A stretch of DNA of 64,000 nucleotides from Opitutia bacterium. GTDB taxonomy: Bacteria > Verrucomicrobiota > Verrucomicrobiia > Opitutales > UBA953. A program made the position numbers and the translations under genes. The DNA lies in assembly GCA_947470855.1 (NCBI GenBank), contig CANIUQ010000004.1, positions 1 through 64,000 on the forward strand, read 5' to 3'. Of this stretch, positions 6,371 through 9,866 are shown piece after piece; position 1 is the stretch's first letter; each line of letters begins with the position of its first letter. The notes beneath the pieces were generated by a model. The model did no database searches. It was not told the origin of the DNA and worked only from the letters and a program-made list of their open reading frames with translations.

Positions 6371-7063
6371 CTAGAAACCCTTCATCGCATCCCCACCTAA
6401 AGGGGCTGGCGGACGGGATCCAGTATCAAGGGAATCAGCAAAATAGGGCTTATGTACCTGCCAGCCTGCACGATAAGGGGCACCGTGAGACTTTACCCAT
6501 TCGGTAATCGAGTTTAAGACCGTGGATTCGGACCGTTGTGACCACTCTGGGTGGAGCCACACATTGGGCGCATGCCAATGCCCGCCGACAGCCGAGGTCC
6601 ATTTTTTCATCGAATCGGGCGATTCCACGATGAGTTTTATCTCATTCGCCCGAATTAGGGAGTCTGGTAAAGGGGGTTTTGCCCATTTGGGGCTTACAGT
6701 CACCCAGGCAAAGCCATCGGCAATGGGATAAGCTCCGCAGGTTTCAAGGTGGACGGGTAAACCGACAGCACTGCAGGCCTTCAACAAGGAAGTTAGGTCG
6801 TACACGCAAGGCTCGCCACCCGTAATCACCACAAATTCAGGTTGGTTTGCCTTGGCTTCTCGAGCCAACTCCTCGGCACTCGCCTTACGAATGTCCTTAG
6901 GAATATACTGAGGATGCCAAGTGGAAGCAGAGTCACACCATGGACACTTTACTGGGCAACCTTGCAGGCGAATGAAGAAAGCTTTGCGCCCAAGGTGAAC
7001 ACCCTCCCCTTGCCAACTGAGAAACGTTTCATTGACCGGATAGAGTTCAGCCATCTTAGACAT
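6371..7063 (-). CDS. queE: 7-carboxy-7-deazaguanine synthase (radical SAM)
   Basis: 231 residues from ATG at 7063. A second ATG at 7054 (MAELYP) is equally possible. The radical-SAM cluster motif is C36-x3-C40-x2-C43 (GCPVKCPWCD), the usual CX3CX2C, and ITGGEP follows further on. QueE converts 6-carboxytetrahydropterin to 7-carboxy-7-deazaguanine in the preQ0/queuosine pathway. The start overlaps the queD stop by a few bases, so the two are co-translated. queC lies 2.7 kb away on the same strand behind two unrelated-looking envelope genes. queF and the tgt/queA genes are not in the window. Confidence 0.93.
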   Translation of the reverse strand: MSKMAELYPVNETFLSWQGEGVHLGRKAFFIRLQGCPVKCPWCDSASTWHPQYIPKDIRKASAEELAREAKANQPEFVVITGGEPCVYDLTSLLKACSAVGLPVHLETCGAYPIADGFAWVTVSPKWAKPPLPDSLIRANEIKLIVESPDSMKKWTSAVGGHWHAPNVWLHPEWSQRSESTVLNSITEWVKSHGAPYRAGWQVHKPYFADSLDTGSRPPAPLGGDAMKGF

Positions 7064-7490
7064 CGGGCTGATAGCGCGCCGAATTTTTAGAATCTTCGTG
7101 GAGAATGATTTGCTGCACCCAAGCTCGGTCACCGAATTCTTTTCTTACCATCGGATCAAAGGTTTCGAAAAGAAACTGCGCGATACCTTCGGTTGAAACG
7201 GACTCAATGACCAAGGCTTTGAAAAGTTGTGGGTGATTTTTCAAAAGGGCTTCACGCTGAGGATCCGCTTTGGCGAAAAGACAGGCGTGATCCAAATTCT
7301 CATCAATCCATGTTTTTAAAAAACCGAGACCGCCGAAATCGACGACAAAGCCTCGTTGGTCGATTTGTTTACAAGCAAACTCGATTTCAATCGACCAGTT
7401 ATGTCCATGAATAAAAGCACAACGCCCCTCGTGCCTAAACTGACGATGAGCGAAAGGGATATCGGCAAAGACTTTACGACACGTAAACAT
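7056..7490 (-). CDS. queD: 6-carboxytetrahydropterin synthase
   Basis: 144 residues from ATG at 7490. The open frame extends to a TTG at 7529, but homologous proteins begin at MFTCRKVFADIPFAHRQ. The zinc-binding histidines are H15 (FAHRQ), H28 and H30 (IHGHNW), and C24 is in the position of the catalytic cysteine. A second conserved stretch is LDHACLF. QueD makes 6-carboxy-5,6,7,8-tetrahydropterin from dihydroneopterin triphosphate, the step before QueE. A perfect 7-bp hairpin (7505-7521) sits 15 bases before the start. Confidence 0.93.
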   Translation of the reverse strand: MFTCRKVFADIPFAHRQFRHEGRCAFIHGHNWSIEIEFACKQIDQRGFVVDFGGLGFLKTWIDENLDHACLFAKADPQREALLKNHPQLFKALVIESVSTEGIAQFLFETFDPMVRKEFGDRAWVQQIILHEDSKNSARYQPDV

Positions 7491-7504
7491 GAACACAGGG
7501 AAAT

Positions 7505-7521
7505 AGACGAGGCGCTCGTCT
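7505..7521 (-). promoter_or_regulatory. Hairpin in the queD leader
   Basis: AGACGAG and CTCGTCT separated by three bases form a perfect 7-bp stem whose end is 14 bases before the queD ATG, where a ribosome would bind. It may modulate translation. It does not resemble the preQ1 riboswitch consensus. Confidence 0.35.
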
Positions 7522-7561
7522 CCTCGCAAGGCACATTCTTGATAAACCCTAAGAATTAGAC

Positions 7562-7599
7562 AAAAAAGAGGCCTACCCTCGATTTCTTAGGTAGGCCTC
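7562..7599 (-). terminator. Rho-independent terminator of the barrel gene
   Basis: On the minus strand a perfect 10-bp stem (GAGGCCTACC paired with GGTAGGCCTC, 12-base loop) is followed by six T residues. It lies 26 bases after the stop of the 7626-8549 gene and separates it from queD. Confidence 0.9.
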
Positions 7600-7625
7600 G
7601 GTACGGCTATGAAACGGTGATTGTC

Positions 7626-8549
7626 TTAGAACGAATGGATAACGCCAATGGACCAAATACCTGTTGCGTGTACCGGATTCACCAATCCACTTGTTTTAGG
7701 CACCTTGCTTTCGACTTTCACAGGTTCGCTGTAAAAAACATAGGCTGAGGTTGATTGATTCATCTTATAACTAAGCCCTGCCGCGAGGATGGTTTCGAAT
7801 CCTCCACTCTCAAGGTCTTCGCTATAAGTCGCATCAACGGTGCGCTGAATATTTTTATCGCGATATTGACGAAGGTAAGTCGCCTGCAGTGAAGCCGACA
7901 ACTCAGGAGTCAATTCATAGCGCAAACCACCGCTCACCGAGACAATACTTCCAGGACGGAAATAGGTATCGGAAAGCAATGAACCTTGAGCTTGTACCTG
8001 CAGAAATTGCGTAAACACATCGGTGGATAATCCGAAGTCTTTACGCAATCCCAGTAAGAGGTCGGTTGAACCCGTGCCTGGCTGCAAATAACGACGTGGC
8101 ACAGTGAGAACCAAGTCGTCTTTACCCGTGGGCAGTTTAAGTCCTGCGATAACCGTATAACCCTGCCAAGGGAAACGCGTAGACACAGTGATATCACCTA
8201 AGCCTACGACTTTACCAGAAGACGAACTGGTTTTGAGCGTACGATCAATACGAGGCACGGTAATCGCTACCGTCTGGCCAAAGAGTTGCGTTTCGAGAGT
8301 CGCAATCAAATTACGGTGTAAGGCCGTAAAATGCGCATGCGCTCCGTTGTTACGCTCATCTTGATTGATGTAGTCGTATCGCAGGTCGAGCGTGTACTCT
8401 CCCGCTTGTGCAGCAGGACGTTCACTGAGATTATCGACTGTAACTTTAACGCAACCGCAAGGACAGGCCTGTGCAGTGGTGAAGACTCCTAAAGCAAGGA
8501 ATCCGAGTAGGGCCGCTGGCGTTGAGCGAGCGAAGGAAGAAGTATTCAT
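7626..8549 (-). CDS. Putative outer-membrane beta-barrel protein with CPCGC motif
   Basis: 307 residues, ATG start. Residues 1-28 form a signal peptide (basic start, hydrophobic core AALLGFLALGVF, AQA before the cleavage site). The mature protein opens with CPCGC, a Cys cluster that could bind a metal or be disulfide-bonded. The rest alternates short amphipathic strands (LDLRYDYI, VSGGLRYEL, LSASLQATYL) and ends in phenylalanine (GVIHSF), the recognition signature of outer-membrane barrels. It resembles MetA-pathway/transporter-type barrel proteins in general pattern only. Function unknown. A strong terminator follows it, and an operator-like dyad lies 22-49 bases upstream. The gene before it encodes a small exported CPLC protein, so the two may serve one metal-related task; that is inference. 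Confidence 0.75.
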   Translation of the reverse strand: MNTSSFARSTPAALLGFLALGVFTTAQACPCGCVKVTVDNLSERPAAQAGEYTLDLRYDYINQDERNNGAHAHFTALHRNLIATLETQLFGQTVAITVPRIDRTLKTSSSSGKVVGLGDITVSTRFPWQGYTVIAGLKLPTGKDDLVLTVPRRYLQPGTGSTDLLLGLRKDFGLSTDVFTQFLQVQAQGSLLSDTYFRPGSIVSVSGGLRYELTPELSASLQATYLRQYRDKNIQRTVDATYSEDLESGGFETILAAGLSYKMNQSTSAYVFYSEPVKVESKVPKTSGLVNPVHATGIWSIGVIHSF

Positions 8550-8570
8550 GATTATTAGGTTTTTGGTTTA

Positions 8571-8598
8571 CGTGTAAGGTGTGGCCAAATCTTACACG
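8571..8598. promoter_or_regulatory. Operator-like dyad upstream of the barrel gene
   Basis: CGTGTAAG (8571-8578) and CTTACACG (8591-8598) form a perfect 8-bp inverted repeat with a 12-base spacer, 22 bases upstream of the barrel gene start and between two tandem Cys-motif genes. Arm length and spacing suit a dimeric regulator or a leader hairpin. No U-run follows on either strand, which argues against a terminator. It matches no regulator site I recognise. Confidence 0.4.
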
Positions 8599-8679
8599 CA
8601 AACAGGCGCGCACCCATTGGGGAGCGACTTGTTAAAAAGTGAAGCCACGATGGACCGAAGTCCAAACGAGAAGAAATCG

Positions 8680-9075
8680 TTAAACTTTCGGGGGTGGCAC
8701 AGGTACTTCTTGATTTAAGGTTTTCGGCTTAGCTCCTGCTTCAGCAGAAAAAGTAAAAGGTGTCGATGTTGGTAATTCTAAAACCAAAACAACGTCTGGT
8801 GCATAATCGGTCGCGGTTTTCGCTTTCAGCATTTCTGGCTTAGAGGCAGGCGACTGTTCGGTTGAATCGCGACCTTTCTTCGAAGCGGCGCAAAGCGGAC
8901 AAGGGGCGTCTTGAAGTGTTTTCGCAATCGCTGCGCCCACTGGCATCGAAGCGGCATTGGCTTTGGACATATTCACCCAAGCTACCACTTGCAAAAGATC
9001 CCAACAAATTCCTGAAGATGCCAACCAAGCCATGAGAGCGGCCCACGCCATCGACTGTTTCAGGAAGCGAAACAC
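8680..9075 (-). CDS. Small exported or membrane-anchored CxxC protein
   Basis: 131 residues from a GTG at 9075; an ATG eight codons in (9051) is an alternative. The N-terminus is hydrophobic (MAWAALMAWLASSGICWDLLQVVAWV), either a signal peptide or a membrane anchor. A CPLC motif (PCPLCAA) follows near residue 60, and the tail is low-complexity and Pro-rich, ending PVPPPKV. I do not recognise the family; CPLC resembles motifs in small envelope proteins linked to metal handling. It lies between queC (90 bases upstream) and the CPCGC barrel gene (130 bases downstream), all on one strand. It may be expressed with the barrel protein. Confidence 0.6.
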   Translation of the reverse strand: MFRFLKQSMAWAALMAWLASSGICWDLLQVVAWVNMSKANAASMPVGAAIAKTLQDAPCPLCAASKKGRDSTEQSPASKPEMLKAKTATDYAPDVVLVLELPTSTPFTFSAEAGAKPKTLNQEVPVPPPKV

Positions 9076-9165
9076 CTTAGCACTTTTAGGACAGATTTTT
9101 CGGAAAACAAGCCTACGAAAAGTGGTCTGCGAACTAATTAACTATCTAATAGCAGAGATAAGACG

Positions 9166-9825
9166 CTAAGCCAGATACTCCGTTGGATCAGCAACGCCTG
9201 CTTTGATAAAAGCCTCTTTGCGCTCAACACACGTACCGCATTTACCGCAGTGTTTGGCACCACCGACGTAGCAAGACCAAGTGAGGTGCAAGGGAACTTG
9301 GAGGCTGGCTCCGAGTTTTACGATTGCCGCTTTATCCATGCCAACAAAGGGCCGTTCTAGAGAAATCTCATGCCAATCCGCTAGGCGCATCGCCTGATCG
9401 AGAGCCTCGGCAAAAGCGGGACGACAGTCGGGGTAAATCGCATGATCACCGCCATGGGCACCGTAAGCCACCGACGAAGCACGTAAGGAAATTGCCCAAG
9501 CCGTTGCCACGGAAATCAGCAGCATATTGCGATTGGGGACCACCGTAGCCTTCATCGAAATTTCTTCGTAGTGTCCTTCGGGCACAGCCACTTTCGCATC
9601 AGTCAAAGCATTAGCACCAAACAAGGGAGACAGTGCACGCAAGTCGGCGACTTGGTGTTTAATTTTATAGAAATCAGCAATCTGTTTGGCGGCCTCAATT
9701 TCACGTCGGTGGCGCTGTCCATAATCAACACTTAGCGCAAAAACTTCGCGTCCCTCGGCTAAGAGTTTGCCGAGCAAAACCGTGGAGTCGATTCCTCCTG
9801 AATGAATAAGCACCGTGCGCTGCAT
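9166..9825 (-). CDS. queC: 7-cyano-7-deazaguanine synthase
   Basis: 219 residues from ATG at 9825; the frame also has a TTG one codon earlier. The PP-loop SGGIDS (9-14) binds ATP. The C-terminal zinc site is the four-Cys cluster in CYVGGAKHCGKCGTC. QueC adenylates the 7-carboxy group of CDG and converts it to the nitrile preQ0. It completes the queD-queE-queC set in this window but is the last gene of galE-HIT-ybeY-queC (41 bases after ybeY) rather than being next to queDE. Confidence 0.95.
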   Translation of the reverse strand: MQRTVLIHSGGIDSTVLLGKLLAEGREVFALSVDYGQRHRREIEAAKQIADFYKIKHQVADLRALSPLFGANALTDAKVAVPEGHYEEISMKATVVPNRNMLLISVATAWAISLRASSVAYGAHGGDHAIYPDCRPAFAEALDQAMRLADWHEISLERPFVGMDKAAIVKLGASLQVPLHLTWSCYVGGAKHCGKCGTCVERKEAFIKAGVADPTEYLA

Positions 9826-9866
9826 CAAACAGAGATAAAGTTGGAAACCGAAAAAGAGCGAGAAAG

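What the first reader, a model, noticed from the sequence alone, without database searches (positions are those of the whole stretch)
7626..9075. Paired envelope proteins with Cys clusters between queuosine genes
A small exported protein with CPLC and a barrel candidate whose mature N-terminus starts CPCGC are tandem, lie between queC and queD, and are separated by an operator-like dyad. Two Cys motifs facing the periplasm suggest a metal acquisition/efflux or redox pair that I cannot assign to a known family.
Basis: inference. Interest (0 to 1): 0.5.

Follow-up and report, generated by a model that had tools for sequence, protein, structure and literature searches.

The report
Copper-sensing leader before outer-membrane channel
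The small protein beside this outer-membrane channel is probably not a working envelope protein but a built-in metal sensor that, while being made and together with a folded RNA behind it, decides whether the channel gene is expressed.

Summary
The two genes and their Cys motifs are real and co-occur in relatives, but the pair reads better as regulator plus target than as two envelope partners. The 131-aa small protein has CPLC and ends EVPVPPPKV. Its family (52 of 288 sampled genomes of the phylum) keeps CxxC and a terminal PP motif about 63 residues apart, in front of exchangeable genes: TonB copper receptors (12 of 14 have it directly upstream), SCO1, NosL, or a CxCGC barrel. That is the architecture of the copper-responsive leader peptides CruR and CutF. 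It is, however, not detectably DUF2946, lacks RAPP and has a longer ruler. The barrel models as a COG4313/FapF-type channel. Related ACSxCGC barrels in Proteobacteria often follow RGPP/RAPP-type CxxC leaders, but acidobacterial ones do not. Best reading: a copper-gated attenuator of a non-TonB outer-membrane channel, perhaps for copper entry. Sensing, arrest, sign of control and substrate are untested. The queuosine genes look like conserved bystanders.

The parts
8680..9075 (-).
   Evidence: ORF; family alignment; 52 of 288 genomes; spacing
8890..8901 (-). CPLC codons (residues 59-62), putative metal site
   Evidence: both Cys invariant in 23 rows
8683..8709 (-). C-terminal EVPVPPPKV, putative arrest tail, directly before the stop codon 8680-8682
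   Evidence: VPVPPP invariant in 23 rows; PP within the last 16 residues in 40 of 40 phylum leaders
8552..8679 (-). Structured intergenic RNA element (model R1): P1, GUGGC, P2, P3
   Evidence: fold and covariation; 33 matches in 30 of 79 genomes; no Rfam match
8651..8664 (-). Hairpin P1 (GGACC-UUCG-type loop in the window)
   Evidence: helix 1
8644..8648 (-). Pseudoknot 5' strand GUGGC
   Evidence: helix 2; variants
8606..8628 (-). Hairpin P2
   Evidence: helix 3
8566..8603 (-).
8581..8585 (-). Pseudoknot 3' strand GCCAC in the P3 loop
   Evidence: helix 2; GCGGC/GCCGC in L028, L029
7626..8549 (-). Target gene: outer-membrane channel, predicted about 12 strands, mature N-terminus CPCGC (codons 8451-8465)
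7562..7599 (-). Terminator-like hairpin (11 bp) followed by six T, between barrel and queD
   Evidence: fold z -4.6; not listed by the pattern scan, whose loop limit is 8

Best explanation
A metal-responsive leader-peptide / RNA attenuator module controlling an outer-membrane channel. The 131-aa product acts as a nascent chain with an N-terminal hydrophobic segment. When its PPP tail reaches the ribosome's catalytic centre, the CxxC lies about 64 residues back. Metal (most likely copper) binding to CxxC changes how long the ribosome stays at the tail, and this changes expression of the gene downstream through the pseudoknotted RNA that starts at the leader's stop codon. Shown by computation: leader family, motifs and spacing, exchangeable and often copper-related targets, covarying RNA, leader-RNA association, channel fold. 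Inferred: metal sensing, arrest, copper as the signal here. Most likely sign (about 0.6), by analogy with CruR and because the same leader precedes OprC-type importers in the sister genus: low copper, channel made; high copper, channel off. The barrel would then admit copper or a copper complex without TonB.
For: Leader family before TonB receptors in 22 of 38 loci read, 10 of them over the TIGR01778 copper cut-off, plus 2 SCO1 and 1 NosL. Of 14 over-cut-off copper receptors in 288 genomes, 12 have the leader directly upstream. In one GTDB family the leader heads OprC in G001 and G004 (genus g2) and the barrel in genus g1; no g1 genome of the 79 has an over-cut-off OprC. CxxC-to-last-PP spacing 64.0 +/- 0.8 (23 of 23 genus rows) and 63.3 +/- 3.2 (40 of 40 phylum leaders) although the linker is the least conserved part (39% identity against 65% before it and 88% in the tail). 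RNA: 82% of cells paired, 20 of 32 pairs with two-sided change on the unfitted alignment. 30 of 33 RNA copies lie within 20 nt of a leader hit. Three genomes with queC-barrel-queD but no leader also lack the RNA. ACSxCGC barrels: 35 of 80 named-genome loci have a CxxC...PP ORF just upstream against 20 of 1415 control windows, with RGPP/RAPP tails in 12 proteobacterial loci. The genome has two COX1-family (haem-copper oxidase) genes.
Against: No experiment on this family. No R[AG]PP motif; PPP[KR] arrest is unproven. 25 of 38 loci read have targets without an unambiguous copper family, including siderophore-type receptors and PEP-CTERM proteins. Two variant leaders with this RNA precede receptors whose best model is ZnuD, though far under its cut-off, so zinc is possible. 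None of 13 acidobacterial/Holophagaceae barrel loci shows a convincing leader. The RNA is found only in this genus: no convincing match at the leaders of other genera. C>G content, the Rho sign in CruR, is present in the intergenic RNA of all 23 sequences but not in the leader's 3' half on average. A promoter-like site at 8551-8578 just before the barrel (1 found, 0.5 expected) could give it leader-free transcription. Seven genomes carry the barrel without a leader hit, some at contig ends. In one search the count of further pair types was reached by 45 of 500 shuffles.
Confidence: 0.65

Rival explanations
1. One reading: the two proteins are envelope partners, the small exported CxxC protein delivering or receiving metal or electrons for the barrel.
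For: Tandem conservation; hydrophobic N-terminus; conserved CxxC.
Against: The same small family precedes TonB receptors, SCO1, NosL and others; fixed linker length without sequence conservation; motif at the stop codon; co-absence of leader and RNA while the barrel stays in G028, G032 and G059, the G032 barrel itself being decayed.
Confidence: 0.1
2. Same leader mechanism, but the sign is CutF-like: metal prolongs the pause and turns the barrel on, and the barrel serves efflux or detoxification.
For: CutF precedent with an RNA stem-loop (PMC9973294); hand-picked downstream neighbours of ACSxCGC barrels include a heavy-metal P-type ATPase and CusF.
Against: OprC-type importers behind the same leader family; no Shine-Dalgarno before the barrel and only 5 of 50 window ORFs (first-ATG starts, some spurious) with an SD-like 4-mer, so the CutF way of shielding an SD does not fit.
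Confidence: 0.25
3. The leader senses another metal or redox state (zinc, nickel, disulfide formation) rather than copper.
For: ZnuD as best, sub-cut-off model for receptors behind two variant HCG[PA]C leaders; thioredoxin-fold AhpC/TSA proteins behind four proteobacterial barrels (hand-picked); His-only CutF-like leaders head HupE genes (PMC9973294, section 11).
Against: The window's leader is CPLC like those before OprC; the unambiguous targets of the 38 loci are copper ones (10 OprC, 2 SCO1, 1 NosL).
Confidence: 0.2
4. The intergenic RNA is itself a riboswitch, for a metal or for a queuosine precursor, with the barrel as a transporter of that compound.
For: Covarying pseudoknotted RNA inside a queC-queD-queE neighbourhood conserved in the genus.
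Against: The RNA also lies away from que genes, behind leaders before ACSTCGC barrels (L034, L035, L139) and ZnuD-like receptors (L304, L305); it follows the leader; no Rfam riboswitch match.
Confidence: 0.1

Closest known systems
CruR (bp2923) of Bordetella pertussis, DUF2946 leader (PMC9426467)
   Same: Small first ORF with export segment, CxxC and a C-terminal Pro-Pro motif at a fixed distance, a long intergenic gap (162 against 130 nt), heading outer-membrane copper genes including OprC type.
   Different: Here PPP[KR] instead of RAPP, about 64 instead of 45 residues, no detectable DUF2946 homology, C>G bias only in the intergenic RNA across the genus, a covarying pseudoknot, and a barrel target without TonB features.
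CutF of Rhodobacter capsulatus (PMC9973294)
   Same: Exported nascent sensor with Pro-rich tail followed by RNA structure before the regulated gene.
   Different: CutF uses CxxxC, 45 residues, and a stem-loop over the Shine-Dalgarno of a multicopper oxidase gene; here no Shine-Dalgarno is seen and the target is an outer-membrane channel. Whether this family is among the 29 CutF-like clusters of that paper could not be read.
COG4313 channel Pput2725 (PDB 4rl8) and FapF (PDB 5o65)
   Same: Barrel fold: Z 23.5 (rmsd 2.9, 244 residues) and Z 22.5.
   Different: 12-17% identity; the CPCGC N-terminus and metal-linked leaders are not part of what I saw for those proteins (titles and an abstract start only).
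OprC / TonB-dependent copper receptor (TIGR01778)
   Same: Outer-membrane protein placed behind the same leader family in other genera.
   Different: TonB receptor with plug domain; the window's barrel shows neither in Pfam nor in the model.

Membership tests
DUF2946 (PF11162) | Match to the Pfam model over its cut-off | tested here: not met
   No match for the window protein; best of 23 relatives E 0.063
DUF2946 (PF11162) | Profile-level homology | tested here: not met
   hhalign probability 0.7%, 9 columns, with 9 verrucomicrobial DUF2946 hits, one of them under the cut-off; the same method links the genus and phylum leader sets at 99.9%, both containing the window protein
DUF2946 (PF11162) | CXXC and C-terminal RAPP about 45 residues apart (PMC9426467) | tested here: not met
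   CxxC present; tail is PPP[KR], spacing about 64
CruR-type copper leader | First gene before copper genes, same strand, long gap | tested here: met
   In relatives:
CruR-type copper leader | C>G region from the uORF's second half (Rho use) | tested here: inconclusive
   Seen in the window and in the intergenic RNA of 23 of 23, not in the leader's 3' half on average
CruR-type copper leader | Copper-dependent relief of translation arrest | not testable with these tools
   needs reporter and toeprint
CutF-type leader | RNA stem-loop covering the target's Shine-Dalgarno | tested here: not met
   Structured RNA present but no Shine-Dalgarno; P3 ends 16 nt before the ATG
CutF-type leader | Cleavable Sec signal and co-translational export | not tested
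   hydrophobic N-terminus by eye only
COG4313 / PF13557 channel | Sequence match over the Pfam cut-off | tested here: inconclusive
   none for the window protein; 9 of 24 relatives at E up to 1, best 3e-6
COG4313 / PF13557 channel | 12-stranded barrel of this fold | tested here: met
   model mean pLDDT 75, 13 strand segments read as 12 strands; Z 23.5 to 4rl8
TonB-dependent receptor | Plug domain and TonB-receptor barrel | tested here: not met
   no PF00593 or PF07715 match for the window barrel
Known Rfam RNA | Match of the intergenic RNA to a family | tested here: not met
   no match to the element at E up to 5 (window) or 2 (seven relatives; one unrelated weak hit overlaps it on the other strand in L014)

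The most novel reading that the evidence does not exclude
A second, independently evolved class of copper-sensing nascent-chain regulators: a verrucomicrobial leader family not detectably related to DUF2946, with a PPP[KR] arrest tail and a ruler about 17 residues longer than CruR/CutF that would place CxxC outside the membrane, acting in this genus through its own pseudoknotted RNA. It controls a new kind of outer-membrane copper channel that needs no TonB and takes the place of OprC within one bacterial family, while proteobacterial leaders of the RAPP/RGPP class stand in front of the same broad barrel family.
Probability: 0.4. Interest if true: 0.8.

Novelty: new variant of a known kind. 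Interest (0 to 1): 0.62.

Why it matters
Copper entry across the outer membrane is poorly understood, and the copper-specific transporters named in the passages I saw are TonB receptors (PMC12914433). If true, this gives a testable TonB-free candidate channel in several phyla, suggests that metal-sensing leader peptides arose more than once with different rulers and tails, and adds a structured RNA whose role in arrest-based control can be dissected. It also warns that small 'exported CxxC' ORFs should not be read as periplasmic proteins without looking at their last residues.

Tried and rejected
Queuosine link: queC, queD and queE flank the pair in the genus (tblastn matches in 25, 28 and 26 of 30 loci, the window's own included), but a terminator-like hairpin separates barrel and queD, the pair in genus g5 (L031) shows no que match, and leaders occur elsewhere; treated as bystanders. 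DUF2946 membership: rejected. TonB identity of the barrel: rejected. Transcriptional operator: the dyad covaries as RNA; no repressor was tested. Shine-Dalgarno shielding: does not fit. Plasmids: two weak 'transporter' hits on Ca. Manganitrophus; no CxxC...PP leader recognised upstream. Literal CSVCGC paper search: none of the ten listed papers holds it. Rfam: nothing.

Limits and dropped rows. Of 40 regions fetched, L140 holds no leader and L104 was dropped because I found no clear downstream gene; 38 loci (40 proteins, A3) remain, and the assignment of the non-receptor loci is mine. In one search part of the output was cut; one search gave the table used. The scan kept the best 80 of 106 relatives. 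L213 is probably a chance hit. CPFAQSA...RGPP variants (L214, L215, L245) were seen but not counted; the list was cut on screen. The ten proteins were hand-picked. L031 was left out of A6. Sequences used to build R1 match it by construction; L011, L015, L027, L037, L304 and L305 were not used in building. A7 is fitted to the model and leans towards the structure, so A6 is the fairer count. One search used stricter filters and missed the L304/L305 copies found. The SD count uses first-ATG ORFs, some spurious. Signal peptides and metal binding were not predicted. I saw no paper on this verrucomicrobial family in searches; 'Verrucomicrob' occurs 0 times in the main texts of PMC9973294, PMC10987492 and PMC12914433 and once (phylum list in a legend) in PMC12992588; supplements, including the 29 CutF-like clusters, could not be read.

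Full report
What is there. On the minus strand the order is queC (9166-9828), a 131-aa ORF (8680-9075), a 130-nt gap, a 307-aa barrel (7626-8549), then queD- and queE-like genes. The genome is a 1.36-Mb draft. Contigs of the same length as those of genus-mates G050, G061 and G077 are titled uncultured Opitutae, so it is probably an opitutal verrucomicrobium.

Co-occurrence. In 79 genomes of its GTDB family the barrel is found in 38 and the small gene in 35. By my hand count from those tables 31 have both, 7 the barrel only and 4 the small gene only (some at contig ends). Two of these four (G001, G004; genus g2) carry the small gene just before an over-cut-off TonB copper receptor. None of the genus-g1 genomes has such a receptor. 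Within one family the same small gene heads either OprC or the CxCGC barrel.

The small gene is a leader. A profile of it finds relatives in 52 of 288 genomes across the phylum, against 7 of 288 for the barrel. I read 38 loci downstream. 22 are followed by TonB receptors, 2 by cytochrome c plus SCO1, 1 by NosL, 4 by ACSxCGC barrels, 2 by other barrels, 3 by PEP-CTERM proteins, 2 by cytochrome/beta-propeller proteins and 2 by other genes (families, assignment of the smaller classes mine). Ten receptors exceed the TIGR01778 copper cut-off; the others are siderophore-like or unplaced. Turned round, of 14 over-cut-off copper receptors in 288 genomes, 12 have the leader directly upstream; G349 and G166 do not. 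All 40 leader homologues in these regions have CxxC and a PP motif within their last 16 residues. The spacing is tight (64.0 +/- 0.8 in 23 genus rows, 63.3 +/- 3.2 in the 40) although the linker is the least conserved part (39% identity, against 65% before it and 88% in the tail). Fixed length without fixed sequence, and a motif pressed against the stop codon, is what a nascent-chain ruler predicts.

Known counterparts. CruR is a DUF2946 leader whose CXXC and C-terminal RAPP, 45 residues apart, mediate copper control of a TonB transporter through Rho (PMC9426467; abstract, Results and Discussion read). CutF is an exported nascent sensor whose Pro-rich tail and an RNA stem-loop control a multicopper oxidase (PMC9973294; abstract, sections 10-12 and part 1 of the Discussion read). 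RAPP-dependent arrest of CruR in vitro is reported in PMC12992588 (passages). The present family works like these but is not detectably DUF2946: no PF11162 match, and profile comparison with nine verrucomicrobial DUF2946 hits aligns only the CxLC (probability 0.7%). Its tail is VPVPPP[KR] or similar and its ruler is about 17 residues longer. With the CutF authors' figures (about 30 residues in the ribosome, 17 to cross the membrane) 64 residues would put CxxC beyond the membrane. That is inference.

The RNA. The gap is 130 nt in the window and 127-141 nt in 22 relatives, and folds recurrently as P1, single-stranded GUGGC, P2, and P3 with GCCAC in its loop. On the unfitted alignment A6, 82% of cells pair, 20 of 32 pairs show two-sided changes, no shuffle of 500 reaches the covariation score (45 of 500 reach the count of further pair types), and sliding the partners drops pairing to 33-50%. 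On the model-fitted A7 it is 89% and 24 of 32, slides 31-56%. RNAalifold, not told of it, found the GUGGC/GCCAC helix; it is GCGGC/GCCGC in L028 and L029, and exact in 30 of 34 rows, the last two rows holding GCCAC a few columns away. Rfam has no match. The covariance model finds 33 copies in 30 of 79 genomes, all in the genus: 30 lie within 20 nt of a leader hit, 2 at contig starts, 1 behind a partial leader hit. Weaker copies (26.3 and 23.2 bits) lie between variant leaders (HCGPC, HCGAC) and ZnuD-like receptors in L304 and L305. Three genomes with queC-barrel-queD but no leader (G028, G032, G059) have no RNA match either. So leader and RNA seem to move as a unit, independent of the target; but leaders of other genera show no convincing match to this model.

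The barrel. It has no Pfam match above cut-off by itself; relatives reach PF13557 at 3e-6. The genus also holds ACSTCGC paralogues with their own leaders. The model (mean pLDDT 75) has about 12 strands and matches the COG4313 channel 4rl8 (Z 23.5, rmsd 2.9, 244 residues) and FapF (Z 22.5); the CPCGC stretch is modelled with low confidence. A scan of named genomes with the ACSxCGC barrels gave 106 relatives, the best 80 kept. 39 of 80 have a CxxC...PP ORF ending within 700 nt upstream (one, L213, probably chance); by a strict rule 35 of 80, against 20 of 1415 control windows (loose: 50 of 1415). The 26 verrucomicrobial leaders keep the long ruler (62.6 +/- 1.5); the 12 proteobacterial ones (Dyella, Rhodanobacter, Frateuria, Pelomonas, Janthinobacterium and others) end RGPP or RAPP with the short ruler (46.7 +/- 1.0). 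Two leader types in front of one barrel family supports the barrel being metal-regulated. Against it, 13 acidobacterial or Holophagaceae loci show no convincing leader. Hand-picked downstream neighbours include a heavy-metal P-type ATPase, CusF and four AhpC/TSA-type thioredoxin-fold proteins. The own genome has two COX1-family genes, so it probably needs copper.

How it most likely works. Shown by computation: the module and its anatomy. Inferred: copper binds the nascent CxxC; this changes the ribosome's dwell at PPP; the ribosome's position at the edge of P1 decides whether the barrel is expressed. Cu-off control is favoured (about 0.6) because of the OprC partners; Cu-on is the main alternative. 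Shielding of a Shine-Dalgarno is unlikely, since none is seen and only 5 of 50 window ORFs show one. Rho is open: C exceeds G in the intergenic RNA of all 23 sequences, not in the leader's 3' half on average. A weak promoter-like match (8551-8578) before the barrel is at chance level.

Verdict. Observation confirmed, interpretation partly supported, filed as a new variant of a known kind. The leader as regulator is likely, copper as its signal here is probable, and the channel's copper role is a prediction.

Noticed in passing
L304:794-3285 and L305:1335-3821 (genus-mates G053, G061): Variant leaders with HCGPC or HCGAC precede a TonB receptor whose best NCBIfam model is ZnuD (266-271 bits, cut-off 950), followed by a TonB-like gene; the R1 RNA lies between. 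Possibly a zinc-tuned version.
   Followed up: partly
L240:5065-5496, L241:3359-3988: An ACSxCGC barrel that has a leader upstream is followed by a second leader-like ORF (CPLC), so two leader units stand in series.
   Followed up: no
L143, L144, L145, L147, L149, L150: True DUF2946/RAPP-type ORFs in other verrucomicrobia sit beside a His-rich exported protein family (...FNPAVSAIVDMYYY...EGLSHMKEEMPGF...); target unknown.
   Followed up: no
L301 (G032:C6): Barrel without leader between queC and queD matches only residues 99-307 and contains a stop codon: it seems to be decaying where the leader and RNA are absent.
   Followed up: partly
L062:7488-8918 (Ca. Manganitrophus plasmid CP114554.1): A distant barrel relative annotated 'transporter' lies among nikR, chromate-resistance and TlpA genes, directly after a small exported-looking ORF with His and Cys but no PP tail at its end.
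   Followed up: partly
window 6371-9828: queC, queD and queE keep their order around the leader-barrel pair through the genus, an unusual lasting insertion into a biosynthetic neighbourhood.
   Followed up: partly
window, whole: Only 5 of 50 ORFs of 150 aa or more (first-ATG starts) have a Shine-Dalgarno-like 4-mer upstream.
   Followed up: no
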